A stretch of DNA of 34,264 nt from Sulfurimonas sp. SAG-AH-194-I05 (GTDB taxonomy: Bacteria; Campylobacterota; Campylobacteria; Campylobacterales; Sulfurimonadaceae), in the NCBI RefSeq assembly GCF_029215955.1, contig NZ_JAEMVA010000018.1, forward strand, positions 1 through 34,264. The letters are read 5' to 3'. Below the pieces are notes generated by a model. That model was given only the letters and a program-made list of their open reading frames with translations, made no database searches and was not told the origin of the DNA. The position numbers and the translations under genes were made by a program. Positions 2,293 to 34,264 of the stretch are shown one piece after another (position 1 is the stretch's first letter; every line of letters begins with the position of its first letter).

Positions 2293-3549
2293 ATGAATGA
2301 TACGAATTTACATGAGTTAATGGATATACTTGAAGCACATCCCGATTTTATACAGTACGATTATAAAGGTGATGAAAATCAAATTCTTATTGACAAACAA
2401 TTAATTACTTTACTCCTTAGATATTTATTGAAAATTGGAAAAAAAGAAGAAGAATTAAAAAAAGAGTTAAAGTTTCTCATTAAGCATGCTTTTGAATTAG
2501 GTGAGAGAGATTTAGTACTCAGTAAAAATAATAATATTTTTATTAAAATTGTAAACTTAGATACAAGAGTAGTTATTGAAGAAAAAGATCAAGACACTAT
2601 TAAGAATCGTTTTTCAGGTATAAATGAAGATGAACTCAAAAAATTTCATAATGAATTTTTTGCAGAAAAAGAAAATCAAAACTTTTTTAATCATATTGCA
2701 CTCGAATTTGTTACTCTTTATTTTCATGAAAAAAAAATAACAAATTATGTATATGAAAAAAATGTTTTTGGATATATTCAGTCGATTATCTACAATAATC
2801 TTGTTTCCATGTATGATAATGATGATGGCTTTTTTACTGGATTTGCAGGATATATATTTCGAATTCATTTTGAAGATGTATTTGCACATATTGCAGATTT
2901 AATTTTAGATGAAATATCAATGGCAAACAACTATCTTATGGAATTTTTAGATTACTATGCTTCAAATATCATTGTAATAAATGGGGAAAAGTACCAGGTT
3001 CCTGCAATCGAAGCTGGGAAGGGTCTCAAGTGGAGTGTTGTATCTATGCTATCCATTTCAAAGATATATACAAAAACAAAAAAATCAATCATTGCTTTAG
3101 AAAAAGAGATTGAGACCTTAAAAATTAAAATCCAAAAACTTTTTATAAATAAATTATCTCCGACACAGTATCAAACATTATTTATAGCTGAGAAACAAAA
3201 ACTTGAACATAATATAGATAAGGTTACAAAAGATCTAGAAAAACATTTAGATGCACTAGATTTAAAACCTATCAAAGATAAAAAAGAATTATTGCAGCGT
3301 CAAATTAGAAAGATTAGAGAATCCTTAGAGTTATTGAGAAATAAGAAAAAAGAATTAGCCACGCGAGCAATAAATCAAAAAGTTCTTCAAGAATATTCAA
3401 ATCTACAACGCGAAATGGACAAAATGAAAAGACATTTAATTCGAGATAAAAAAATCATTGCTCAAAATGACGATTCTTATAAATCTATGCGAAACTCCTT
3501 AGTTAAAGCATTGACTTCTAAAAAAAAGTTATTATCCCCTGCCAAATAA
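2293..3549 (+). CDS. Unrecognised lysine-rich coiled-coil protein
   Basis: A 418-residue cytoplasmic protein with no signal peptide or membrane segment. The N-terminal half (about 1-245) looks globular and acidic/aromatic, with many Asn, Phe and Tyr residues. From about 255 to the end it is rich in Lys, Glu and Leu with heptad character, a long coiled coil. I do not recognise a family. It is flanked by genes on the other strand, and its last 32 bases overlap the end of pgpA tail to tail. No strong Shine-Dalgarno precedes the ATG. The reading frame is long and closed, so it is very likely a real gene; function unknown. Confidence 0.7.
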   Translation: MNDTNLHELMDILEAHPDFIQYDYKGDENQILIDKQLITLLLRYLLKIGKKEEELKKELKFLIKHAFELGERDLVLSKNNNIFIKIVNLDTRVVIEEKDQDTIKNRFSGINEDELKKFHNEFFAEKENQNFFNHIALEFVTLYFHEKKITNYVYEKNVFGYIQSIIYNNLVSMYDNDDGFFTGFAGYIFRIHFEDVFAHIADLILDEISMANNYLMEFLDYYASNIIVINGEKYQVPAIEAGKGLKWSVVSMLSISKIYTKTKKSIIALEKEIETLKIKIQKLFINKLSPTQYQTLFIAEKQKLEHNIDKVTKDLEKHLDALDLKPIKDKKELLQRQIRKIRESLELLRNKKKELATRAINQKVLQEYSNLQREMDKMKRHLIRDKKIIAQNDDSYKSMRNSLVKALTSKKKLLSPAK

Positions 3550-4015
3550 TAGCACTTGATATTCCAGCAGCAAAACCTGCAATAATATCATCACCCATAA
3601 CACCTAAACCACCTTTAACTTCACGGTCTATTCTTCCAATAATAGAAGGCTTTGCTATATCAAAGTATCTAAAAAGTGCAAAAGATAAAACTGATTGAAT
3701 TAAAAAACCATTTTCCCACATGCTCAGCGCATTAAAACTAATGCTAATTGCTGGTGCTAAGCTAAGTGCAAACCACATGCCAGCTAACTCGTCAATAACG
3801 ATTCTTTTATCGTCATGAATGTTCGAGTGTGCTTCATACTTGTTAATCTCTTTAATGGCGATTATACTTACTAAAACAGTGGCTAAAAAAAGTGTTTGTG
3901 AACCAAAGTATATAAGTATCATCATACCTAAAGGAAGTGAAACTAATGTACCAACTGTGCCTGGTGCCTTTGGTGATAAACCGCTGTAGCCTAATGTTAT
4001 AAAAAACCAATTCAT
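3518..4015 (-). CDS. pgpA: Phosphatidylglycerophosphatase A
   Basis: Dephosphorylates phosphatidylglycerol phosphate to phosphatidylglycerol in the inner membrane. The 165-residue length and motifs fit PgpA: GYSGLSPKAPGTVGTL near the N-terminus, IVIDELAGMW in the middle, and FRYFDIAKPSIIGRIDR followed by GGLGVMGDDIIAG near the C-terminus, the acidic metal and substrate residues of the family. Several hydrophobic segments match an integral membrane protein. It is the last gene of the ispDF / regulator / ATP-sulfurylase-like / pgpA run, 11 bases after its upstream neighbour. Its end overlaps the convergent coiled-coil gene by 32 bases. Confidence 0.92.
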   Translation of the reverse strand: MNWFFITLGYSGLSPKAPGTVGTLVSLPLGMMILIYFGSQTLFLATVLVSIIAIKEINKYEAHSNIHDDKRIVIDELAGMWFALSLAPAISISFNALSMWENGFLIQSVLSFALFRYFDIAKPSIIGRIDREVKGGLGVMGDDIIAGFAAGISSAIIWQGIITFF

Positions 4016-4026
4016 ATGCGTCCTCT

Positions 4027-5217
4027 TTATGTAAGTGAAGATGTTTGGTAGAGCTTCATAAGCTCTAAATAAAAATCTTTTTCAGTATGCTCTTCTAGCA
4101 GTGCTCCTGATGGTAAAATATCGTAGTATAATCTTTCCAAATTTTTAAACCTCTTGGGAAGTACTTTTGAAAGTAAAAATGCAGATATTTCTTTGCGTAT
4201 TAACACCGCAGGAGGCAGTATTCCAAGTTGTAAAAGTTCAAGCATTGAGTCCGAATGATAAGAAATCTGGTGATGCTGTCCATGTGGACATGTATTTTTA
4301 CTTACAAGTGTCGTACACTTATCACAGTAAACATATTCACTTGATATTTGAATTTCTATATCAATTCCAACAACTTTATCAGCTATTGATTTGTTAGAAT
4401 TACAATCATAATACATACCTAAGCCAGCATGATTGCTCCCTATTGTAATTCTATCGCACCCATGATTTTTCGCAACAATAGCATCAATGATAATTTCGTT
4501 AAATCCAGCAAAAATATAAGAATTTTCTAATGGAACTATGATGACTTTATTTTTTGGTAAAAAATTATTAATAAAGTACTCTAATGCCTCTTTACGAATT
4601 TCATAACTTAGCTGTACGCTATCGTTTGGTTTAAGTAAAAAGATAACGAGCAAATCTGTTGTATCTAAGGCTTGTCGAATAACCCTTTCATGTGCTCTGT
4701 GAAGAGGGTTTGCTGCCATAAAAATTGAAGTAGTATGTTTTGCATTAATTAATTTTTTTGCATCTTGAATAATTTTTATATTTTTATTTGGACTGTGGTT
4801 ATAAATTTTATATACGCCGCTAAGTGCCCAGTGTCCAAGTCTTTTTGTGGTAGCCATCACACCTGGATGTGTCGCATCACTTGTCCCATAAATATGCTTT
4901 GCTCTTTCTTTTGGATCTATCTTAAAGGTATCATCAACAACTAAACTAGCGTATTCTTCACCTTCACATAAGATAGTAACTTCCTCTCCAGCTTCTAGAC
5001 TTGAAATTATTTCCTCATTTTTCGTTCCAGATGGAGCGAGTATAAAAGGAAAAGGAAAAGTTTTTCCATTAATTAAATTTGTAGAGAGAACTTTTTCACT
5101 CTCATTTTTTCCCATAAGAGATTCCAGAGGATACAAAAGTTTATCAGCTACAAGCTCTAAAGCAGCAGCCGCTTCAAGGTCAATATAAACTGTTTTATTT
5201 TTTCTTAATGATGTCAT
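4027..5217 (-). CDS. ATP-sulfurylase-fold protein lacking the sulfate-binding residues
   Basis: By overall sequence a 396-residue sulfate adenylyltransferase homologue. GTSDATHPGV (111-120) and GHWALSG (128-134) match the N-terminal half. The nucleotide-binding HxxH is intact in NPLHRAHE (170-177). A C-x2-C-x8-C-x-H cluster (Cys298, Cys301, Cys310, His312) matches the zinc site of prokaryotic Sat. Canonical QTRNP, however, is MAANP (167-171), and GRDHAG is GSNHAG (260-265), so the Gln and both Arg residues that hold sulfate in characterised enzymes are missing. It probably still binds a nucleotide but acts on another acceptor, or is regulatory. It overlaps the upstream response-regulator gene by 23 bases; the same neighbours occur in Campylobacter (cj1607-cj1610), from memory. 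Confidence 0.85.
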   Translation of the reverse strand: MTSLRKNKTVYIDLEAAAALELVADKLLYPLESLMGKNESEKVLSTNLINGKTFPFPFILAPSGTKNEEIISSLEAGEEVTILCEGEEYASLVVDDTFKIDPKERAKHIYGTSDATHPGVMATTKRLGHWALSGVYKIYNHSPNKNIKIIQDAKKLINAKHTTSIFMAANPLHRAHERVIRQALDTTDLLVIFLLKPNDSVQLSYEIRKEALEYFINNFLPKNKVIIVPLENSYIFAGFNEIIIDAIVAKNHGCDRITIGSNHAGLGMYYDCNSNKSIADKVVGIDIEIQISSEYVYCDKCTTLVSKNTCPHGQHHQISYHSDSMLELLQLGILPPAVLIRKEISAFLLSKVLPKRFKNLERLYYDILPSGALLEEHTEKDFYLELMKLYQTSSLT

Positions 5218-6082
5218 ATTTTTTACGTCTTTCCCAAAGACTTTTACGTGAAATACCTAGCTTTTTTGAAAGTTCTGTATCTGGAAATTTATGCTGGTAA
5301 TTTAAAACGATAAATTTAACATAATCTTCAATAGGAAGAATATCTCCTTGTGCAAAAACATTGTTTTCACTTTTAATTTTTATAATCTTATGTGCAACAT
5401 CTTCTACGTTATCTGTACTCGAAACAATTACATTTTTGTTTGCTATTAAACTACAAAATGTTTTCTTTTCGGCCTTTTTAAGTGTTTGGTAATCTATAGC
5501 ATAAACAATACCTTTAGCACTTAAAGCAGCGATTTCATTCATAGCTTTAGGGTTACTCAGTGAAATAAAATTGAGAGGCATTTTCTTACTCTCAGCATGC
5601 TCAAATGCAAAAGCATCAGCATATTTTTGAAAACTTGATGATACATAAATTGGTAGCTCAATATCTTTATGTTTATGGTCGCGTCGTACTGAAGCAAAAG
5701 TATGTTTTAAATATTTTTCATACGCAGTATTTTTAATTTTAAGTCTTTCATAGTCTTGGTAATGGTCTATTTTACGAATCAATTCTTCTATCATAAATGG
5801 TTTTAAAATATAATCTTTTGCGCCCGCAGAAAGAGGTTTTGAAACAGTATCATTGCTAATGTATGAGACCATTAAAATTACAATAGATTTTTTAAATACT
5901 TCTATTGCAGGATGAAAATCTTGCCCGTTTATATTTGTCGAAAGTAAAACAACATCGTAGTTGTTTGAAGGGACTGCATCTTTTGTTGAAGTACACATCT
6001 CACACGTATGACCGAGTTCACCTAATTTTGTAGCTATACTTTGCGCTAAGTATATTTCGTTCTCAATTATCAGTATTTTCAA
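5195..6082 (-). CDS. Atypical response regulator of the HP1021/Cj1608 type
   Basis: A 295-residue DNA-binding regulator. Residues 1-120 form a receiver-like domain (MKILIIENE start; Lys94 of the LKP motif present), but the phospho-acceptor Asp is replaced by Ser48 in VVLLSTN, and the acidic pocket is Glu-Asn. The C-terminus (about 252-295) is a Fis-like helix-turn-helix: LSKKLGISRKSLWERRKK. This architecture and its place beside ispDF match HP1021 of Helicobacter and Cj1608 of Campylobacter, phosphorylation-independent regulators linked to redox response and to control of DnaA at oriC (established for those proteins). Three cysteines (27, 30, 210) could serve redox sensing; that is inference. 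It overlaps ispDF by 4 bases and the next gene by 23. Confidence 0.88.
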   Translation of the reverse strand: MKILIIENEIYLAQSIATKLGELGHTCEMCTSTKDAVPSNNYDVVLLSTNINGQDFHPAIEVFKKSIVILMVSYISNDTVSKPLSAGAKDYILKPFMIEELIRKIDHYQDYERLKIKNTAYEKYLKHTFASVRRDHKHKDIELPIYVSSSFQKYADAFAFEHAESKKMPLNFISLSNPKAMNEIAALSAKGIVYAIDYQTLKKAEKKTFCSLIANKNVIVSSTDNVEDVAHKIIKIKSENNVFAQGDILPIEDYVKFIVLNYQHKFPDTELSKKLGISRKSLWERRKKYDIIKKK

Positions 6083-7200
6083 ATTTCCGTCCAGTTAAAA
6101 TATTTTAAATTTGCATTTGCAATGACACCAACACCTTCACCTCTCCCTATAAATCCGAGTTTTTCAGTTGTTGTTGCTTTTATGTTTACTCTACTCATAT
6201 CTATGTTTAATATATGTGCAAGTGTTTTTCTCATAGGAAGTTTATATTTTCCTACTCTTGGTTTTTCAGCCGTTATTGTAATGTCAATATTTATGATGAC
6301 AAAACCAAAGTTATTTATTTTTCGTACTACATTTTCTAAAAGTTTTTTCGAATCAATATCTTTATATTCATTATTATTATCAGGGAATAACATTCCAATA
6401 TCACCCATTCCAGATGCGCCAAGAAGAGCATCTATTAAGGCGTGAATAGCTACATCACCATCACTATGCGCTTTAAAACCAAAATTTGATTCTAAGTGTA
6501 CACCGCCTAGATACATTTTTTTCTTGTCCTCAAAAGCATGTACATCAAAACCAGTACCACTTAATATGTCATTTGATGGTTTAGATAAGCAAGAAAGCTT
6601 GTTTAAATCGTGTATATACGTAATTTTATGGGCTTCATCTTCACCTAAAAGAAACACCCTACTCCCTGCATTTGCAACAATTGCACTACTTTCATCTGTA
6701 TATTCTTCATTTGTTTGTAAAGCATTTTTCAATACTTCCGTACGAGAGAGTTGTGGTGTTTGAATTCTCTTCACCTTGTCTCTATCAATAGTTGTGTCTT
6801 CGTAAACTATAGTATCTGTTACTTTAAGAAACGGAACAATACAATCTGCTTCTCCCTTTTTTGCAATTATTCTTTGTAAAAATGTTTCACTTATACACGA
6901 ACGTGCGATATCACTCACAAGAACGAATTCAGTAGTAACTTCTTTAAGAGCATTCTTGAGTGATTCTTGACGTGATGAACCGCCCTCAACAAAGACATAC
7001 TCAGCATAATAAGGCATAAATGCAATAGAATCAGCTGAAGAGGTAATAATTATTTTTTCAAATAATTGTGTATTTTGAAGCTTATCTGCTACAAATTGCC
7101 ACAATGGAGTATGTCCAATACGTAGCCACTGCTTTTTAACGGTACTATTAAATCGAGTAGAACTACCAGCAGCAAGTAAAATAAGTGTCAAATCATGCAA
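6079..7200 (-). CDS. ispDF: Bifunctional IspD/IspF isoprenoid enzyme
   Basis: Carries two non-consecutive steps of the methylerythritol phosphate pathway: cytidylyl transfer to MEP (IspD, about residues 1-210) and cyclisation to MEcPP (IspF, about 216-375). The IspD loop LAAGSSTRF is at the N-terminus. IspF has its metal ligands in GTGFDVHAF and AHSDGDV, and ends with TTTEKLGFIGRGEG. The fusion is typical of Campylobacterota and alphaproteobacteria. Three TTG codons lie in tandem at 7206-7198. I chose the third (7200) because AGGGG (7211-7207) is then six bases upstream; the first TTG would touch it. First gene of the four-gene minus-strand run. Confidence 0.93.
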   Translation of the reverse strand: MHDLTLILLAAGSSTRFNSTVKKQWLRIGHTPLWQFVADKLQNTQLFEKIIITSSADSIAFMPYYAEYVFVEGGSSRQESLKNALKEVTTEFVLVSDIARSCISETFLQRIIAKKGEADCIVPFLKVTDTIVYEDTTIDRDKVKRIQTPQLSRTEVLKNALQTNEEYTDESSAIVANAGSRVFLLGEDEAHKITYIHDLNKLSCLSKPSNDILSGTGFDVHAFEDKKKMYLGGVHLESNFGFKAHSDGDVAIHALIDALLGASGMGDIGMLFPDNNNEYKDIDSKKLLENVVRKINNFGFVIINIDITITAEKPRVGKYKLPMRKTLAHILNIDMSRVNIKATTTEKLGFIGRGEGVGVIANANLKYFNWTEI

Positions 7201-7233
7201 CAACAACCCCTATAGTTTTAAAAGTGTTACGAA

Positions 7234-10553: not shown

Positions 10554-11636
10554 ATGCTTGTACATATTTGTTGTAGTGTCGACTCACACTTTTTTTTAGA
10601 AAAACTCCAGACGGATTATCCAGAAGAAAAACTTACTGGTTTTTTTTATGACCCAAATATTCATCCTTATTCAGAATACCAACTTCGTCTTTTAGATGTA
10701 CAACGTTCATGTAAAAAGCTCGGGATAGAAGTTCTTGAAGGTCCCTACGACTATGAAAACTGGCTTCAAGCAGTTCGTGGACTAGAAAATGAACCCGAAA
10801 AAGGTGCACGGTGCGAAGTATGTTTTGATAAACGTTTTGATGTGAGTGCAAAAAAAGCACTTGAACTGGGTGAAAAAAAAATCACTACTACCCTTTTAGT
10901 AAGTCCTTTAAAATCACAAGAGCAACTTAAACGTGTTGGTGATGCCTTTTATGAAAAGCATGGCGTTGCATTTATTGCAGTTGATTACCGCTCAAAAGGT
11001 GGAACACAAGATCAAAGTCGTGTCACAAAAGAAGAACAGCTTTATCGACAAGATTATTGTGGATGTATTTTTGGATTAACTATGCAAAGGGATCAGCAAA
11101 ATAAACTCATGGATGAAATGTTTTCTCCTATTTCAAATCTTACACTTCCAGCTTCTATAGAAGAAAGAATCCACATGTATAAATATAGAATGGAACTTGA
11201 AGATGAGAATAAAGAATATAAAATCATAAAACAAAAATTTTTAAATTATAGACAGTTTAATTTTAAACTTATAAAAGGAAAAAGAGAAGTTCTTGATGCG
11301 TATGCTCTTTCTTATTCAACACTTCAAAGAAAAAAAGCACAAGGTCGTATAGAATTTACAAATGAAAATATCCATTATTTTAATAGAGAAGAGATAAAGT
11401 TTATTACACTTGATTATTTCAATCTTACATGTGGAACAAGCTATCAAGCAATAAAAGAACTTATTTTCAACCCACCTCACTTTGAAAAAGAGATGGAATG
11501 TAGAAGAGCTATGCTGTGTGATAACTATGATATTACACCGATAATAGTTGTCAAAAATATTCCAGATGGAAAATTAAGTATTGAATTAGATGCTAAAACA
11601 TATGAAGATGTAAAAGAAAAACTAATCATTTTATAA
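10554..11636 (+). CDS. queH: QueH-type epoxyqueuosine reductase with an extra C-terminal domain
   Basis: Likely reduces epoxyqueuosine to queuosine in tRNA, the last step of Q34 modification, using an iron-sulfur cluster. Residues 1-175 are QueH-like: HICC (Cys6, Cys7), FYDPNIHPYSEY (31-42), GARCEVCFDKR (Cys87, Cys90), TTTLLVSPLKS (111-121) and YRQDYCGCIFG (Cys169, Cys171). Family members are usually about 180-240 residues. Here another 180 or so follow, Lys- and aromatic-rich, with no family I recognise, in which HTH-like SYSTLQRKKAQGRIEFT (about 254-270) stands out. It stands alone between the divergent TetR cassette and fabZ. Confidence 0.85.
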   Translation: MLVHICCSVDSHFFLEKLQTDYPEEKLTGFFYDPNIHPYSEYQLRLLDVQRSCKKLGIEVLEGPYDYENWLQAVRGLENEPEKGARCEVCFDKRFDVSAKKALELGEKKITTTLLVSPLKSQEQLKRVGDAFYEKHGVAFIAVDYRSKGGTQDQSRVTKEEQLYRQDYCGCIFGLTMQRDQQNKLMDEMFSPISNLTLPASIEERIHMYKYRMELEDENKEYKIIKQKFLNYRQFNFKLIKGKREVLDAYALSYSTLQRKKAQGRIEFTNENIHYFNREEIKFITLDYFNLTCGTSYQAIKELIFNPPHFEKEMECRRAMLCDNYDITPIIVVKNIPDGKLSIELDAKTYEDVKEKLIIL

Positions 11637-22698: not shown

Positions 22699-25909
<3,211 letters not shown>

Positions 25910-25923
<14 letters not shown>

Positions 25924-26521
25924 TTTTTCCACATGCACTTCCTTCAAACTTTTCCATAGTTACATTTGTATCTGATGCTATATTACTTCTTTTAACTACT
26001 TTTAAAAATGTCATCCACAATATTTTTAAATCTAAAAAAAATGATTGATTCTCAACATACCAAACATCATATTCAAATTTTTTTTCCCAACTAATTGCAT
26101 TCCTTCCATTTACTTGTGCCCACCCAGTAATACCAGGTTTCACAGAATGCCTTTGTGCTTGTTTAGAATTATAGAGAGATAAATATTCTACCAGTAAAGG
26201 ACGTGGACCTACAAAGCTCATTTCACCTTTAAGTACATTAAAAATCTGAGGTAATTCATCTAAAGACGTACTACGAATAAACTTACCAACACCAGCGATT
26301 CTTTGCGCATCTGGTAATAGTTCACCCTTAGAGTCTTTTTCATTTGTCATGGTTCGAAACTTATAGATACCAAATATTTTCTCATTCAATCCTGGACGTT
26401 TTTGTCTAAAAAGTATGGGTGATCCCATTTTAATTAAAATTAAAAAAGAAACAATCACATAGAAGGGTGAAAATAACACTACTAAAAATAAAGCTAAACC
26501 AAAATCAAATAATCTTTTCAT
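25910..26521 (-). CDS. pglC: PglC-like phosphoglycosyl transferase
   Basis: Transfers the sugar-1-phosphate from the UDP-sugar to undecaprenyl phosphate, the first membrane step of the N-glycan. A re-entrant N-terminal hydrophobic helix ([12 protein letters not shown] onward) is followed by [18 protein letters not shown], the catalytic Asp-Glu pair in SLDELPQ, VGPRPLL and [14 protein letters not shown]. From the ATG at 26521 it is 203 residues, close to the 200 of Campylobacter PglC; a longer start at 26545 is possible. It overlaps both neighbours (17 and 14 bases). Confidence 0.92.
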
Positions 26522-27647
26522 ACACTTCCATATATTTTGACACAACTATTTTCACATCAAATTCTTTTAATACTTTTATTCTACCATTTATGCCCATAGA
26601 CTCTCGTAAAGAGCTATCATTTATAAGCTTTTCAATTCCACAGGCTAAGTCTTTAGAGTCTTTCACCTTTACTAAAAAACCATTTAATCCATCCTCGACA
26701 ACTTCTCTGCATCCTATAGCATCTGTTGTAACAATTGGTTTACGCATAGAAGCTGCTTCAAGTAAGGTTCTTGGAACTCCTTCACGGTAACTTGGAAGTA
26801 CATAAATATCACTTAATGCTGTTACATCAACGATATCATCACGGTGCCCTAACCAACCAACATTTGATGATGACAAAAAGTCCCTATTTGCACAAGAGTG
26901 GTTTCCATCATCTGTATCACCAACATAAAGGAATATAACATGTGGATATTTACTTTCTAGTTCTTTAGCTGCTTCATAGTATTCTCTAACACCCTTGTCC
27001 CAGATGGCACGCGCGACCATTAGAACAACGATACTGTTTTCATCTATTTTTAGTTCTTTTTTTAAAGCTTTTTGTATCTGTAAGTTTTGTTTTTGAATAT
27101 CAAATTTTTCACTATCGATACCTGAACTTTTTATAAGAACTGCTTGATTTTTTTTTACAAGTTCTTTATCTAAAAAATATTGCATGTCATCACTATTTTG
27201 AAAAATCACAAATGATACTTTTTTATTTGCTTCTCTGTAAAGTGTTTCAATGACTCTTCTAACAGTTTTTGCCTTTGTAGTTTCTTGTATAAAAAAGCTG
27301 CCCATCCCAGTAACAGAGTTAATAACTTTTGAAACTCTTGCTAAATGCCCTGCAATAGAACCATATATATTTGGCTTAACAGTAAAGTTATGTAAAACAT
27401 CTAGCTCTAATGGCTTAACAACACGGTAAATATTTCTAATTGTTTGAAGCTCTTTGAGGGGATTTAAACTCTTTCTTTGTATCTTGTAGTCTAAGGCTAG
27501 AACACCATGCTGAACAAATAAGTCAAATTTTTCACCTCGTGGACAAATTGCATATACAATATGTCCTCTTTTAATGAGCTCTATCATAATAGGTAAACGA
27601 AATAAATATAAATTTAAGTCAAGATGAGAAAGAAAAGCTATAGTCAT
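26505..27647 (-). CDS. pglA: PglA-like glycosyltransferase (GT4 family)
   Basis: Likely adds the second sugar to the lipid-linked acceptor. The N-terminus [20 protein letters not shown] resembles PglA. The C-terminal domain has the GT-B signature [19 protein letters not shown], the E-x7-E pattern of retaining transferases, preceded by [16 protein letters not shown] and [10 protein letters not shown]. From the ATG at 27647 it is 380 residues and overlaps asnB by 4 bases (ATGA); an in-frame ATG 39 bases upstream is less likely. Sugar specificity (GalNAc in Campylobacter) cannot be read from sequence. Confidence 0.85.
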
Positions 27648-29443
27648 AAACTCTTTTTCCAACTCTCTAAACTGAACATATCCCACAACATTTTTGCTCT
27701 TTTTTCATCAGAAACATTCACTTTTTTTTGTAAAAGTTTTTGAATAAATTCATTGTCTACAAACGTAGAAGAATAAGAGTTTATATTTAAACTTTCATAT
27801 ATAGTATCTTTTAAATCTTTCTCTACCCATTTTTTTAGAGGTACTTCAAAACCTCTTTTAGGTTGAGAAATTAATTCACGAGGTAAGTACTTTTTAGATA
27901 GTTCACGTAAAATATATTTTGTTGTTTTACCTTTTATTTTGTACGCATCTTGCAGTGTTGGAGTAAATTCAAGCATATACTTACTTAAAAATGGGCTCCG
28001 ACCCTCCAAAGAATGTGCCATAGTCGCAATGTCCATTTTCACTAATAAGTCAGATAACAACAGCATATTAAAATCAAGATACAACTGCTTCGAAAGTCCT
28101 GTTAATGTACAAGTGCTTATAAACTTTTCCATTTCTTGCATTATATGGTTATTTGTAAACGTATAACTATCTTCAAATAAATCTGTAGTAGCTGAAAGGT
28201 AAAAGTCTAAGCCTTGTTTATCTGACATACTCAGGAGTCTATATACATGCGAATACAAAGATTTTTTAGCATGTGGAATTGGTAAAATCTTTAAAAGAAA
28301 GGAGAACTTACTAGCAATGTCAATCCAATTATTTGCGATAGGAACATACCGACGGTACCCTGCAAAAATTTCATCTGCACCATCACCATTAAGAATAACT
28401 GTCACATACTTCTTTGCTTCTTGTGATACATAATAACTAGGTACGGCAGAGCTATCCATAAAAGGCATGCCATAGTTATATAATATTTTTTCTATATCAT
28501 CTTTTACATTCATACTAATCTCTATAGTATGGTGTTGCGTGTTATATTTTGTCGCTGTTAGTTGTGCTAAATGAGACTCATCGTAAGCACCATCAAACTT
28601 AACTGTAAATGTCTTAAGGTTCTCAGTATACTCAGATGCAATTGCAACAATTAAAGAGCTATCAATACCTCCACTTAAAAAAGCTCCAACTTCTAAGTCT
28701 GAACTTAAAAGTCTATCTTTAACACTCTTATGTAGAATGTCATCTACTTTTTTCTTTGCCTCTTCAAAACACAAGTTTGAAGGTTTTTTATAAAAATATT
28801 CTATATCAAAATATTTATTTTTTTTGATATCTAAAGTTTTAATATCAATTATGTAATAACTTCCTGCATCCATCTCTTGAACATTTTTGTATGGTGTATA
28901 TTTTCCATAAAAAAGCCCTACTCTTAAGTATGAAGCTATTGCTTCTTCATCTATTATAAGTTCTTTCACTCCAGATTTTATGGCATTCAATTCACTTGCG
29001 AAAAAAAGAGAGTTTTCATTTTTATAAATATAAAGAGGTTTTTTTCCTGAGCGATCTCTACTTAAAAATATTGTATTTGTATTAAAATCAACTATAGAAA
29101 AGGCAAACATTCCATCAAGCATTTCCAAACATTTTTCTTTGTATTTTATATACATAAAAAGTAAGGTTTCCGTATCTGAAGAAGTATTGAAATTAAACTC
29201 TTTAAGATTTTCTCTTAGTTCTAAATGATTATAAATCTCTCCATTAAATAAAATAGAAAAATTTTTATAATGTAGAGGCTGATGCCCGCAGGATACGTCT
29301 TGTATCGACAACCTTGTATGAATTAAAGCTATTTTATCTTTGATAAAAATCTCTTGTTCATCCGGTCCTCGATGCAAAAGAGAAGTTTTTATAGCCTCAA
29401 GATTATATGTATTGTGATTAATTATTCCTGCTATGCCACACAT
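27644..29443 (-). CDS. asnB: AsnB-type glutamine-dependent amidotransferase
   Basis: A 599-residue asparagine-synthetase-family protein. The N-terminal Ntn glutaminase domain starts MCGIAGI, with catalytic Cys2, and includes HRGPDEQ (24-30) and LFNGEIYNH (65-73). The C-terminal synthetase has the PP-loop LSGGIDSS (256-263) and ILNGDGADEIFAGYRRY. It may make asparagine, or, being inside the glycosylation cluster between the heptad-repeat gene and pglA, amidate a glycan sugar acid as AsnB-like proteins in O-antigen clusters are thought to do. The second is inference from location. ATG overlap with pglA. Confidence 0.9.
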   Translation of the reverse strand: MCGIAGIINHNTYNLEAIKTSLLHRGPDEQEIFIKDKIALIHTRLSIQDVSCGHQPLHYKNFSILFNGEIYNHLELRENLKEFNFNTSSDTETLLFMYIKYKEKCLEMLDGMFAFSIVDFNTNTIFLSRDRSGKKPLYIYKNENSLFFASELNAIKSGVKELIIDEEAIASYLRVGLFYGKYTPYKNVQEMDAGSYYIIDIKTLDIKKNKYFDIEYFYKKPSNLCFEEAKKKVDDILHKSVKDRLLSSDLEVGAFLSGGIDSSLIVAIASEYTENLKTFTVKFDGAYDESHLAQLTATKYNTQHHTIEISMNVKDDIEKILYNYGMPFMDSSAVPSYYVSQEAKKYVTVILNGDGADEIFAGYRRYVPIANNWIDIASKFSFLLKILPIPHAKKSLYSHVYRLLSMSDKQGLDFYLSATTDLFEDSYTFTNNHIMQEMEKFISTCTLTGLSKQLYLDFNMLLLSDLLVKMDIATMAHSLEGRSPFLSKYMLEFTPTLQDAYKIKGKTTKYILRELSKKYLPRELISQPKRGFEVPLKKWVEKDLKDTIYESLNINSYSSTFVDNEFIQKLLQKKVNVSDEKRAKMLWDMFSLESWKKSL

Positions 29444-29477
29444 ACCTATAAGCTCTTTATTAAATATTTATATCTCA

Positions 29478-29906
29478 TCACAATAAACTAGCAGCTTTTA
29501 ATGAACGTTGAATTTTTTCATTGTCTTGAGCCATTTCTCTCAAAACAAAAAGAATACCTTTAAGATTTTCAAAATGCTTTTTATCTTCTGCTTCTCGCTT
29601 ATCTCTTAAATAAATAGCAATAAATGGTGATGCGAATATAAGTCCCATAAGCATATACAAAATATTTTGCATAAAATCAAATCTCTTCTCAACATGTTCA
29701 AACCTTCTATCTACTTGTTCAAAGCGTTTATCTACTTGCTCAAATCGCTTATCAATCTGCTCAAATCGTTTATCTACTTGCTCAAACCTTTTATTCATAT
29801 CTACTCTTAGTTGCTTAATCTCTTTTAAAATCATCTCAGAATTATCAAGAGCAAATAGGTTTATACTTAACATACTCATTAAAATAATAAAAATTATCTT
29901 TTTCAT
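29478..29906 (-). CDS. Exported heptad-repeat coiled-coil protein with a C-terminal membrane anchor
   Basis: A 142-residue protein. A signal peptide (1-19, ending NLFA) is followed by a run of near-identical 7-residue units of the form RFEQVDK (about 40-77), giving a regular coiled coil. Then come a membrane segment (about 81-99, MQNILYMLMGLIFASPFIAIY) and a charged cytoplasmic-type tail of about 40 residues. AAGGAC lies upstream of the ATG. It sits between pglB and asnB. The repeat architecture recalls phage and plasmid Bdr-like or tether proteins but I assign no family. A periplasmic spacer or oligomerisation role is possible. Confidence 0.72.
   Translation of the reverse strand: MKKIIFIILMSMLSINLFALDNSEMILKEIKQLRVDMNKRFEQVDKRFEQIDKRFEQVDKRFEQVDRRFEHVEKRFDFMQNILYMLMGLIFASPFIAIYLRDKREAEDKKHFENLKGILFVLREMAQDNEKIQRSLKAASLL
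29677..29802. repeat. Tandem 21-bp repeats encoding the RFEQVDK heptads
   Basis: Six consecutive 21-base units on the plus strand, each opening with TCAAA and typically continuing CGTTTATCTACTTGC. The middle four (29698-29781) are the closest to each other and the outer two are degenerate. They keep the reading frame of the coiled-coil gene, so gain or loss of a unit would change coiled-coil length by one heptad. Confidence 0.85.
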
Positions 29907-29953
29907 CTCTTTGTCCTTTTAATTAATATTAACATATATTAGCATAATTTCAT

Positions 29954-32101
29954 TTATATCTTCAACTTATAAACTTTAGCAAGTGGAGATAAAATAACAG
30001 GTTCAAATAAATCTTTATTTGCATTTTCCAAAACAAAAAGTTGAATAAACAATGAGTTGTAAAGTCGTCTGTCTAAGACTAAAAATTGATTGTAGTTTTT
30101 CATAAAAATTACAAAAACTTGTGAGGTGGGGTCTATATTTTGAATATTTTTATGTAAAACACCTTTTGAATCATACTCTGTTACTATAAACTGATTTAAA
30201 TTTACTAGCTGATTACCTATTTTAATCTTGCCACCTTGCTTCATCACTTGGACACCATTACCAAGTTTAATACTTGTAGTATCTTCTGTAAATGATTTCG
30301 ATACAAAAAATAAAGGTCTTTTTTTCTGCTTACCAGTTAATAAATCTAAATTTGAAAAAAGGTCTACAGTTGGTAAGATGTTTAACATTCGGTTTGGTAG
30401 ATATACAAAAATATCACGTGTTTTTGTGGGGAGCTGTAAAGTTTTGGAATTCAATGCTGAAACTAATGCATTTGGATTTTTAATATTAGAATGTTTTAAC
30501 ATACATTCTATAGATGGTCCACATGGTTTGGAAAAATTTAATTCTGTAAACTCAACATCAAGTCTAAGCATATTTGCTGCTGCTGTTTGGTTGTTTAAAA
30601 GTGCAAAACTAACTGGAAAGTTAGAACTACCATCATGCTTACCACCATCTACTAAAGTTTTAACATCTGCATAATATCGAATAGGGTATCCATAATCCCA
30701 CCAAGAAAGTACATAGTCTTCACGAGTAGCAATTTGACCAAGTTTATCTAAAACTACAACTTCTTCTTTGTTAAATACCGTTGGTACCTTATAGGCAATA
30801 ATATGCATAATATTTGGATAAAGAACAGCAATAGTTGCTAGTACAATAAATCCATATTTAGCATATTCTTTAATATTATCTGCAAATAAATTTTCAACAA
30901 TGTTTGCCATAATAAAAATGAAGTAAGAAATACCTATAGCCATAAAAGGAACAGAAAAAACAGTAAAGCGAAGTCCACCTTGAAGAGCAAAAAAGCCAAG
31001 TATGACCATGGGAAAAGTTACTATAAAAAGTTTATATCTCCATATAAATAGCATATAGCCAACTATACTCAACCAAAAAGTCAAAGTATGCCCGCTTATA
31101 CGATTTGCAAATGTCTCAAAAGGTATACTACCTACCTCCCGAACAGTACCAACAACACCAAAGTAGTGTAAGGATAAGTTTACATCATCTGCAAATATAC
31201 GAGTAATATATGCATTATTTAAAATTCCTATAATCCAATCAGCACCACCGAAGACCAAATATATAAACGCACTAAGCAGAGAAATACTTATGACTATTTT
31301 TTTTGTTAACTTATCTCTTAAGAAATGAAAAGATGTAACAAGAGCAATCATAAATAAAACCTTGACAAGAACTGGTAAGGTTGTCAAAGCAATCACAAGA
31401 ATAGATAAGAATTTATAGTAATAAAGATTGTGTTTTTCATAAAAAAATGTATAAATAAGCGTTAAGATAAATACACCATTTACTATATGAACTAAACCTC
31501 CATGCCAATGCATAGTAGCTATTGCAAATAATGGAGCTATTAAAAAAGAATCACTATCTTCATGACTTAAAGAATATAAAACTCCCCAAATAAAAAAAGT
31601 AGGTAAAACAACAACGAGTAAGTCTGTGTCATAGTACCCTGTCATAGTACGGTTATAGTAACTCCAAACGATTCCACCCAAAAGTGCAGCAACAAAACCA
31701 ACCATATCTTGCTTGAAAATTCTTGTTATTAACATGATAGGGACTATTAACAAAGACCCAAAAAATGTTGGCATATAAAGAATGAGTGTTTCAAAAGAAA
31801 TCGGTAAAATCGATGCTAAAAAGGCTGTTAAGCGAGAAAGTGGTTGTGAAACGGGAGACAGATCATTATCTTGATGAGTACCAGCTAAAATATCTCTAGC
31901 ACCCTCGGCATAAAAATAACCATCATTAGTGTTAATCATAAGTTGATTATTCCATTTAAAATTATCAACTCCACTAAACTGATCTACCCAAATCATACGA
32001 ACTAAAATGCTAAATATAAATGCCATTAACATTAGGACTAAAAAATACTTAATATTTAAGGTATTTTTTTTTAAATGTAGTGTTTCTTTTATTTTATTCA
32101 C
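29954..32101 (-). CDS. pglB: PglB oligosaccharyltransferase (STT3 family)
   Basis: Transfers the lipid-linked glycan to Asn in D/E-x-N-x-S/T sequons of periplasmic proteins. The N-terminal 430 or so residues hold about 13 membrane segments; the C-terminal domain is periplasmic. Conserved residues: Asp60 in NTNDGYFYAEGARD, TGYYDTD (154-160), Glu322 in VREVG, WWDYGYP (467-473) that reads the sequon, and DGGKH (485-489). It ends KVYKLKI, as Campylobacter PglB ends KVFKLKI; 715 residues versus 713. It starts with GTG at 32101, preceded by AAGGGA five bases upstream, and the small RHH-like gene stops 10 bases before. Confidence 0.97.
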   Translation of the reverse strand: MNKIKETLHLKKNTLNIKYFLVLMLMAFIFSILVRMIWVDQFSGVDNFKWNNQLMINTNDGYFYAEGARDILAGTHQDNDLSPVSQPLSRLTAFLASILPISFETLILYMPTFFGSLLIVPIMLITRIFKQDMVGFVAALLGGIVWSYYNRTMTGYYDTDLLVVVLPTFFIWGVLYSLSHEDSDSFLIAPLFAIATMHWHGGLVHIVNGVFILTLIYTFFYEKHNLYYYKFLSILVIALTTLPVLVKVLFMIALVTSFHFLRDKLTKKIVISISLLSAFIYLVFGGADWIIGILNNAYITRIFADDVNLSLHYFGVVGTVREVGSIPFETFANRISGHTLTFWLSIVGYMLFIWRYKLFIVTFPMVILGFFALQGGLRFTVFSVPFMAIGISYFIFIMANIVENLFADNIKEYAKYGFIVLATIAVLYPNIMHIIAYKVPTVFNKEEVVVLDKLGQIATREDYVLSWWDYGYPIRYYADVKTLVDGGKHDGSSNFPVSFALLNNQTAAANMLRLDVEFTELNFSKPCGPSIECMLKHSNIKNPNALVSALNSKTLQLPTKTRDIFVYLPNRMLNILPTVDLFSNLDLLTGKQKKRPLFFVSKSFTEDTTSIKLGNGVQVMKQGGKIKIGNQLVNLNQFIVTEYDSKGVLHKNIQNIDPTSQVFVIFMKNYNQFLVLDRRLYNSLFIQLFVLENANKDLFEPVILSPLAKVYKLKI

Positions 32102-32111
32102 TTGTTCCCTT

Positions 32112-32249
32112 TTATGATAGCATTAACTCATATTTAATACTTATTAATTCTTCTATTATCTTAACCCGAGTTGTATTCTCTCTTTTTTCTAGTTCTTTTA
32201 AATATCTTATTATTTTTTCATCTAGTAAAAAGCTTTTTATAACTTTCAT
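32112..32249 (-). CDS. Hidden 45-residue ribbon-helix-helix-like protein
   Basis: A small open frame from ATG (32249) to TAA (32112) with AAGGA about eight bases upstream. The product is MKVIKSFLLDEKIIRYLKEL followed by EKRENTTRVKIIEELISIK and YELMLS. This matches the CopG/Arc-type pattern: a short beta strand, helix 1 beginning after LDE, a turn (RENTTR), then helix 2 (VKIIEELI). Such proteins bind DNA as dimers. It lies between the PglJ-like transferase (19-base gap) and pglB (10-base gap). It could be a regulator of the cluster or the leftover antitoxin of a toxin-antitoxin pair; no toxin frame is adjacent. Confidence 0.65.
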   Translation of the reverse strand: MKVIKSFLLDEKIIRYLKELEKRENTTRVKIIEELISIKYELMLS

Positions 32250-32268
32250 TTAATTATTCCTTATATTT

Positions 32269-33417
32269 TTAGTCTTTTATTATATCAAACCATTGCTGTA
32301 TAATTTTATCTTTATCATATTCTTTAGCTCTATCTAAAGCTTTATCTTTATAGCTTCTTCTTAACTTACTATCATTCATCATTAAATCCATAGCCTTAAG
32401 CAGATTATCTTTACAATTAACAGGAGTCAATATTCCAAAGTCAGCTAACTCTATAGTGTCTTTTAATTGAAATTCCATGTCGCTTGTAGGTGATAATATC
32501 TCTCTTGGACCACTTTGACAATCAGTACTAATAACTGGTAATTCACAAGCCAAGGCTTCAAGTAAAACATTTGGAAAGCCTTCATAATTTGAGCTAAATA
32601 TAAAACAATCTGCTTTAGCTAAATACTTATATGGATTTTCTTGACGACCCAATAATATGACTTTTAATTTTAAATTTAATTCATTTATTTGAGATTCTAA
32701 TGCTTGTCGTAATTCACCATCACCTATTATATAGAGTTTTGCGTTTATATTTTTCATAGCTTCTATCATTAATTTATGGTTTTTTTGGTTCTCGAATCTT
32801 CCTATTGTGATAAATGTATAAATCGACTGGCTTATCTCATCTGTAAACTCACCTTTAGATATCAATAGCTTAGTCAAATTAATAGGATTATTAATTACAT
32901 TAATTAATAAAGGACTTATTAAAAAGTTTTTTAGTAAATCATTTTTTATACCAATAGCATTTGGTATAATTACATCTACCTTTGGATATAAATGCTTAAT
33001 TAAATTTCTCGATATTTTATCTTTGATTCCAGCTGTTTTATACTCTTGTGAAGGTACTATTCTTTCACTTATTAATACTCTAGAATTATTACCTGTTAAT
33101 CTTGAAAAAGTATTTATATAATTTGGTCTATTCATAAAAGACAAACTAACATCGATATTATTCTCTTTACATATATTTTTATACTGAAATCCTAATAATG
33201 GTAATTTTAATAGTTTGTAAATACCATTTTCTTTAGGATCTGATTTTTCTAGAAATATTATTTTAGTATCTTTTGGTATATCATAAAACATTGTATCATT
33301 CATAAGTACTAAAGTAATGTTATATTTATACTTAAATTCATTTAATAAAATAGATACAACTCTTTCGGCACCACCCGATGCTAATGAATAAATTAAAATA
33401 GCTAAATTTTTTTTCAT
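32269..33417 (-). CDS. pglJ: PglJ/PglH-like glycosyltransferase (GT4 family)
   Basis: Probably extends the lipid-linked glycan with a HexNAc. The 382-residue product begins with LAILIYSLASGGAERVVSIL, closely like Campylobacter PglJ, and continues MNRPNYINTFSRL and LYPKVDVIIPNAIG. The C-terminal domain has IGRFENQKNHKLMIEAM, GRQENPYKYLAKADCF and SSNYEGFPNVLLEALACELP with the E-x7-E catalytic pattern. PglH is the nearest alternative. It overlaps the upstream SGNH gene by 4 bases (ATGA). Confidence 0.85.
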   Translation of the reverse strand: MKKNLAILIYSLASGGAERVVSILLNEFKYKYNITLVLMNDTMFYDIPKDTKIIFLEKSDPKENGIYKLLKLPLLGFQYKNICKENNIDVSLSFMNRPNYINTFSRLTGNNSRVLISERIVPSQEYKTAGIKDKISRNLIKHLYPKVDVIIPNAIGIKNDLLKNFLISPLLINVINNPINLTKLLISKGEFTDEISQSIYTFITIGRFENQKNHKLMIEAMKNINAKLYIIGDGELRQALESQINELNLKLKVILLGRQENPYKYLAKADCFIFSSNYEGFPNVLLEALACELPVISTDCQSGPREILSPTSDMEFQLKDTIELADFGILTPVNCKDNLLKAMDLMMNDSKLRRSYKDKALDRAKEYDKDKIIQQWFDIIKD

Positions 33418-34264
33418 AATTTCAATTCTTTCTTTAAGTACTTAGCTATTGCCTGATGTGTATTTTCATTCCAATGCCCATCACAAGAAAAATCTATTTT
33501 TTGTTTACTAGATAATTGTTTTAAAAATGGAGCTATATTACTGTGAGAAATATTTTGTTTGTTTAAAAATACTTGAAATTTTTCTCTATTTTTTAAATAT
33601 CCATCATCTTCAAATGTAGAAAATATTATAATTTTATATTTAAAACTCATCTTTTTCGCAATTTTATTTATTTGGTATATAGAGCCTTCAAGTTGTGTCC
33701 ACTTATATTCTTCATTATCTAATATATACTTTTTGTCATTAACTAGTACTTTTACAACTTCTCTTTTTTCTTTAAAAAAATTTGATATATGACTACTATA
33801 AAAGTAAAAAGTTTTTTTCAGGTAAACATACAATTCAAAATGTCCAAGAAAATCTCTTATTTTTTCTTTTATATTATAAACTCTCGGTTTTATAATCTCA
33901 TAGTTCTCGAAGTTCTTAAATTTATAATAGACTTTTGGACGATTTATTTCATTGAAATTTTTTGGATCACCATCATTTAAATCATTCTCTAAAAATACGA
34001 AATGAATCAAGGTATCAATATTTTTTAAATCAACTTTAGTTTTAAGTATCTCTAATTGTTGAGAAGGTCCTGTTCCTGATAGCCCATAATTCAATACATT
34101 ATATTTTCCATTAATCTCTCTATATAAACTATTATGAATCACATTCTCATTCTCGACCATTAATGCTTCTACTTGAGAATCACCTAGCAAAATAATATTT
34201 TTCTTTTTAACATCAAAATCATAAATATTTTGTATTCTTCCATCTTCATCAAAAAAATACTTTG
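33414..34264 (-). CDS. SGNH/GDSL-family protein, cut by the window edge
   Basis: The frame runs open to the right edge, so the N-terminus is missing; the visible part is about 283 residues. KKNIILLGDSQVEAL (the GDS nucleophile region) is followed by VLNYGLSGTGPSQQLE and VFLENDLNDGD. The C-terminal SCDGHWNENTHQAIAKYL supplies the Asp and His of the triad. Family members are esterases or act in O-acetylation of polysaccharides; its place at the head of the visible pgl genes suggests glycan acetylation or deacetylation. The TTG at 34190 is inside the conserved motif and is not the true start. Confidence 0.75.
   Translation of the reverse strand, partial: KYFFDEDGRIQNIYDFDVKKKNIILLGDSQVEALMVENENVIHNSLYREINGKYNVLNYGLSGTGPSQQLEILKTKVDLKNIDTLIHFVFLENDLNDGDPKNFNEINRPKVYYKFKNFENYEIIKPRVYNIKEKIRDFLGHFELYVYLKKTFYFYSSHISNFFKEKREVVKVLVNDKKYILDNEEYKWTQLEGSIYQINKIAKKMSFKYKIIIFSTFEDDGYLKNREKFQVFLNKQNISHSNIAPFLKQLSSKQKIDFSCDGHWNENTHQAIAKYLKKELKL

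What the first reader, a model, noticed from the sequence alone, without database searches (positions are those of the whole stretch)
4027..5217. ATP-sulfurylase homologue without sulfate-binding residues, coupled to an HP1021-type regulator
HxxH and the zinc-binding cysteines are kept, but QTRNP is MAANP and GRDHAG is GSNHAG, so the Gln and two Arg residues that hold sulfate are absent. The reading frame overlaps a response-regulator gene by 23 bases in a run that I recall being conserved in Campylobacter. This suggests a nucleotidyltransferase with a different acceptor, or a partner of the regulator.
Basis: partly seen in the sequence, partly recalled or inferred. Interest (0 to 1): 0.65.

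Follow-up and report, generated by a model that had tools for sequence, protein, structure and literature searches.

The report
Sulfate-blind ATP-sulfurylase relative of Campylobacteria
A gene that most Campylobacter relatives carry and that is annotated as a sulfate-activating enzyme has lost the residues that hold sulfate and mostly sits in cells with no pathway for activated sulfate, so the annotation is very probably wrong and an often essential protein has an unknown job.

Summary
ORF 4027-5217(-) is a 396-aa protein with the ATP-sulfurylase (Sat) fold; MAANP and GSNHAG stand where true Sat has QTRNP and GRDHAG. It belongs to a vertically inherited, single-copy clade, here "CSL", found in 161 of 200 Campylobacteria genomes and separate from true Sat (support 100). 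Across 158 distinct CSLs the sulfate Gln and first Arg are never present (0/158 each), and the pyrophosphate Arg of SGTxxR is usually Leu. The second Arg is weaker evidence: it is Arg in 72/158, and the window's Ser is rare. Fold, zinc site, second His of HxxH and the ribose-binding Gly/His are kept; a near-invariant C-terminal tail (LYQTTSLT) is new. All 25 genomes with an APS/PAPS reductase also have CysD; 144 of 161 CSL genomes have no such reductase, and none of 200 has AprA. The C. jejuni orthologue is essential by TraDIS although C. [quoted passage not shown] So it is very probably not an ATP sulfurylase; a nucleotide-binding protein with another acceptor, or with no catalysis, is likelier. 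The regulator link looks like operon coupling: the two genes are lost or moved independently, and the conserved overlap is explained by the regulator's own C-terminus.

The parts
4027..5217 (-). CSL gene (Campylobacteria Sat-like protein), 396 aa
4804..5202 (-). N-terminal PUA-like domain (Pfam PUA_2), residues 6-138
4171..4728 (-). ATP-sulfurylase domain, residues 164-349
4690..4719 (-). MAANPLHRAH, residues 167-176; replaces QTRNPxHRAH of Sat (sulfate Gln and Arg lost, HxxH kept)
4423..4440 (-). GSNHAG, residues 260-265; replaces GRDHAG of Sat
4267..4326 (-). Zinc-site region CxxC...CPHGxHHQ, residues 298-317 (C298, C301, C310, H312 and H315 invariant in the family)
4240..4257 (-). HSDSML, residues 321-326; replaces SGTxxR of Sat, whose Arg binds pyrophosphate
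4030..4083 (-). C-terminal helix and tail EKDFYLELMKLYQTSSLT, residues 379-396, near-invariant in the clade and absent from true Sat
5195..5217 (-). 23-base overlap of the regulator's 3' end with the CSL start
5195..6082 (-). HP1021/CemR-type atypical response regulator gene upstream in the operon
6079..7206 (-). ispDF, first gene of the conserved run
3518..4015 (-). pgpA (phosphatidylglycerophosphatase A), downstream gene, 11 bases after the CSL stop

Best explanation
CSL is an ancient relative of ATP sulfurylase that was fixed, single-copy, early in the class Campylobacteria and no longer acts on sulfate. Shown: Sat fold, zinc site and the ribose-side pocket residues are kept; the sulfate Gln and Arg are gone in every member; the pyrophosphate Arg is mostly gone; the gene is under strong constraint and sits in ispDF-regulator-CSL-pgpA. 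Inferred: it still binds an adenine nucleotide in the old groove, and couples it to a different acceptor that enters where sulfate used to sit, serving a housekeeping step that matters even to cells that cannot use sulfate. The acceptor is unknown.
For: 0/158 CSLs have the sulfate Gln or first Arg; these contact sulfate in A. vinosum Sat (PMC3779200). H208-, G295- and H298-equivalents kept in 157/158, 158/158 of the 43-row alignment's weight at 1.00 for Gly, and 149/158. Replacement residues are themselves conserved (Ala at the Arg position 136/158, Asn for Asp 138/158, Lys196 130/158), as expected of a rebuilt pocket. AF2 model pLDDT 85.8; best PDB matches are all Sat, Z 32.6 to 1v47. One clade apart from Sat, support 100. 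APS consumers are missing in most carriers, the window's genome included. Constraint like its housekeeping neighbours, pN/pS 0.23 against 0.21-0.27. Essential in C. jejuni and C. coli by TraDIS.
Against: No acceptor, partner or activity is known. N202-, H205- and R365-equivalents, which handle pyrophosphate in Sat, vary inside the clade, which an adenylyltransferase should not tolerate easily. Nucleotide binding is inferred from kept residues only. Essentiality was called only in two of four Campylobacter species tested.
Confidence: 0.45

Rival explanations
1. Non-catalytic nucleotide-binding protein (pseudo-Sat): it binds an adenine nucleotide, or another ligand, and acts as a sensor, scaffold or assembly factor, with the conserved C-terminal tail as its docking piece.
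For: Three of the four residues that handle pyrophosphate in Sat vary among members (N170 N/K/D/R/E, H173 H/N/T, R365-equivalent L/K/R/M) while structural and ribose-side residues stay. A tail that AF2 models with low confidence (last block pLDDT 51) yet is near-invariant suggests a binding peptide.
Against: The rebuilt pocket is conserved, not decayed; H176 is kept in 157/158, and R174 and E177 are invariant in the 43-row alignment. The test for pocket and tail changing together was negative.
Confidence: 0.38
2. Dedicated partner of the HP1021/CemR-type regulator, expressed with it through the 23-base overlap.
For: Adjacent and overlapping by 23 bases in 117 loci; order ispDF-regulator-CSL-pgpA in over 110 loci.
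Against: The regulator persists in 11 of 13 CSL-less genomes tested with ispDF-regulator-pgpA closed up; CSL persists away from the regulator in two genera (L042, L043); the regulator knock-out is viable in C. jejuni but the CSL orthologue is essential.
Confidence: 0.1
3. A genuine ATP sulfurylase with a differently built sulfate site (for instance Lys196 and other gained basic residues holding sulfate).
For: Fold, zinc site and much of HxxH kept; Lys196 is gained on the loop that covers the phosphosulfate site (K 130/158).
Against: All 25 genomes with APS/PAPS reductase also have CysD; none relies on CSL. 118 of 161 CSL genomes have neither CysD nor canonical Sat; 79 have neither reductase nor any APS-kinase homologue; AprA 0/200. 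Two genomes have CSL and canonical Sat side by side (L003/L050, L004/L049). C. [quoted passage not shown]
Confidence: 0.05

Closest known systems
ATP sulfurylase (Sat, sulfate adenylyltransferase, EC 2.7.7.4), zinc-containing type such as Thermus thermophilus 1v47 and Methanothermococcus 8a8d
   Same: PUA-like domain, nucleotidyltransferase domain and zinc-bearing domain III over the whole length (Z 32.6, 26% identity); second His of HxxH, ribose-side Gly and His.
   Different: Sulfate Gln and Arg absent in all members; SGTxxR mostly lost; Asp of GRD is Asn; about 45 extra C-terminal residues ending in LYQTTSLT; separate clade.
Cj1609 of Campylobacter jejuni, annotated sulfate adenylyltransferase
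   Same: Same place after Cj1607 (ispDF) and Cj1608 (CemR), by the gene order named in PMC4435418 and the order seen here.
   Different: Known in print only under the Sat name, and as essential by TraDIS; no biochemistry found.
Phosphopantetheine adenylyltransferase (CoaD)
   Same: Nucleotidyltransferase fold of the middle and C-terminal domains, Z about 15.7; CoaD also lacks a strict first His in its motif (from general knowledge).
   Different: Single domain, no zinc, about 15% identity.

Membership tests
ATP sulfurylase (Sat) | Overall Sat fold | tested here: met
   AF2 model, top PDB matches all Sat, Z 24-32.6
ATP sulfurylase (Sat) | QxRN loop with sulfate-binding Gln and Arg | tested here: not met
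   0 of 158 CSLs have Gln or Arg there; contacts from PMC3779200
ATP sulfurylase (Sat) | GRDHAG loop | tested here: not met
   Window GSNHAG; in the family Arg 72/158, Asp 2/158, His 149/158
ATP sulfurylase (Sat) | HxxH | tested here: met
   HRAH in the window; first His 142/158, second 157/158 in the family
ATP sulfurylase (Sat) | SGTxxR with pyrophosphate-binding Arg | tested here: not met
   HSDSML in the window; Leu 107, Lys 20, Arg 9 of 158
ATP sulfurylase (Sat) | Score over the curated family cut-off | tested here: not met
   191.4 of 387 bits (NF003166), 128 of 323 (TIGR00339); the broad Pfam domain cut-off is met
ATP sulfurylase (Sat) | Makes APS from ATP and sulfate | not testable with these tools
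   Needs an assay; genome context speaks against
CSL clade (Campylobacteria Sat-like) | One clade apart from true Sat | tested here: met
   SH-aLRT 100 between 37 CSL and 6 Sat rows
HP1021/CemR-type regulator (neighbour) | Same gene order after ispDF and one close match per genome, Helicobacter-like genomes included | tested here: met

The most novel reading that the evidence does not exclude
CSL is an unrecognised, class-wide and often essential nucleotidyltransferase of Campylobacteria that joins an adenine nucleotide to an acceptor no known enzyme of this fold uses, and its Sat label has hidden it.
Probability: 0.35. Interest if true: 0.78.

Novelty: new variant of a known kind. Interest (0 to 1): 0.6.

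Why it matters
The label 'sulfate adenylyltransferase' on this gene enters metabolic reconstructions: an orphan sat without the rest of the pathway was called conspicuous in an aquifer epsilonproteobacterium (PMC4674564), and a Nautilia 'sulfate adenylyltransferase' was counted as sulfur respiration (PMC10092268; whether that gene is CSL was not checked). If the label is wrong, sulfate activation is overcounted across Campylobacteria, and an essential C. jejuni and C. coli protein of unknown function is open to a direct assay.

Tried and rejected
Tail and pocket evolving together: g14 of family f3 changes both, but on the tree the independent pairs gave no signal. Link to queuosine: in two genera CSL lies next to queH, but queH is in all 30 genomes tested with or without CSL. 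Anti-correlation with sulfate assimilation: 8 of 39 CSL-less genomes have CysH against 17 of 161, Fisher p 0.11. Relatives outside the class: the one named-genome scan returned 497 relatives but listed only the best 80, nearly all Sulfurimonas, so absence elsewhere is not shown. A paper search for the Sat motifs found none. The window's genome is 85% complete, so its own absences are weaker than those of the complete relatives. Structure matches cover residues 4-357; the C-terminal extension was not searched alone.

Full report
What is there. On the minus strand the window carries ispDF (6079-7206), an atypical response regulator (5195-6082), the 396-aa ORF of the finding (4027-5217) and pgpA (3518-4015). 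ispDF and the regulator overlap by 4 bases, the regulator and the ORF by 23, and pgpA starts 11 bases after the ORF's stop. The nearest named relatives are Sulfurimonas, and the window's genome has 2.05 Mb in 110 contigs, 85% complete.

The protein. It has the PUA-like and ATP-sulfurylase domains of Sat, yet scores at about half or less of NCBI's cut-offs for sulfate adenylyltransferase. The AF2 model (43 sequences, pLDDT 85.8, pTM 0.84) matches solved Sat structures over residues 4-357, best T. thermophilus 1v47 with Z 32.6, rmsd 2.7, 332 residues, 26% identity; the next family is CoaD at Z about 15.7. I call the family CSL.

Residues. In A. vinosum Sat, APS is held by Gln199, Arg201 and Ala299-NH (sulfate), Thr200, Arg201-NH and Asn202 (alpha-phosphate) and Gly295, Arg296-O and His298 (ribose), and pyrophosphate by Asn202, His205, His208 and Arg365 of SGTxxR; that paper calls the Sat substrate site virtually identical whatever the metabolic role (PMC3779200). 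In 158 distinct CSLs the Gln position is Met 104, Leu 37, Ser 7, Ile 5, Ala 2, Phe 2, Thr 1, never Gln; the Arg201 position is Ala 136, Val 9, Phe 7, Gly 3, Leu 2, Ile 1, never Arg. Asp297 is Asn in 138. Arg365 is Leu 107, Lys 20, Arg 9. His208 is kept in 157, His298 in 149; His205 is His 142, Asn 11, Thr 5. Zinc ligands C298, C301, C310, H312 and also H315 are invariant. So the ribose side is kept and the sulfate and pyrophosphate sides are not. Gln and Arg have not simply moved within the aligned loops; Lys196 is a gained basic residue near the site, which leaves a small door open for another anion site.

Family. CSL was found in 161 of 200 genomes of the class, one per genome, and 240 of 298 genomes of the phylum sample match its alignment, a few of them by true Sat. 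It forms one clade against six true Sat rows, three of them from the same class, support 100, and its tree follows the host families. Two genomes, G120 and G162, hold both CSL and true Sat. It evolves at pN/pS 0.23, like its neighbours, with synonymous sites near saturation. The C-terminal extension of about 45 residues ends in LYQTTSLT in most members; 133 of 158 match that strict pattern, and the last residues have low model confidence. In genus g14 the tail is QMSYMV, and in some f2 genera it is lost.

Sulfate pathway. Of the 200 genomes, 50 have CysD and 25 an APS/PAPS reductase, and all 25 also have CysD; 17 of the 25 have CSL. 144 of 161 CSL genomes have no such reductase, 118 have neither CysD nor canonical Sat, and 79 have neither reductase nor any APS-kinase homologue. 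No genome has AprA over the cut-off. No CysD, reductase or APS kinase was found in the window's genome. C. [quoted passage not shown] jejuni and C. coli, though not in C. lari and C. hyointestinalis (PMC10077673). That Cj1609 is the CSL orthologue rests on gene order (Cj1607 IspDF, Cj1608, Cj1609; PMC4435418); I did not have its sequence.

Regulator. The 23-base overlap recurs in 117 loci and the gene order in over 110. But the regulator's own C-terminus, KLGISRKSLWEKRKKY, explains the conserved run; in L042 and L043, where CSL has moved beside queH, CSL starts without MxSxRKN. Of 13 CSL-less genomes, 11 keep a close regulator match and two have only distant ones. The regulator can be deleted in C. 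jejuni and A. butzleri (PMC11334517). Coupled translation is likely; an obligate partnership is not.

Judgement. That CSL is not an ATP sulfurylase I put at about 0.93. Whether it transfers a nucleotide to another acceptor (0.45) or works without catalysis (0.38, plus 0.1 for the regulator partner) cannot be decided here. The first fits the conserved, rebuilt pocket; the second fits the drift of three pyrophosphate residues.

Noticed in passing
window 22699-34190: A run of sugar-modification genes on the minus strand, with a 715-aa protein bearing WWDYG (29954-32101), which by its motif looks like a PglB-type oligosaccharyltransferase with glycosyltransferases and a UDP-sugar dehydratase, aminotransferase and acetyltransferase beside it.
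   Followed up: no
window 2293-3549 (+): A 418-aa ORF with no family over its Pfam cut-off; it converges on pgpA and overlaps its 3' end by 32 bases (3518-3549).
   Followed up: partly
window 10554-11636 (+): queH-type gene of about 360 aa, longer than the 175-position QueH domain; in two other genera a queH gene is the divergent neighbour of the relocated CSL gene.
   Followed up: partly
L042 2195-2599 and L043 2371-2796 (-): Small predicted lipoprotein gene directly downstream of the relocated CSL gene in both genera.
   Followed up: no
L174-L177 (f2 genera g17 and g25): CSL copies on long branches that have lost the C-terminal tail and most of the GxNH loop, in the same family whose genus g18 has lost the gene: CSL may be decaying there.
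   Followed up: partly
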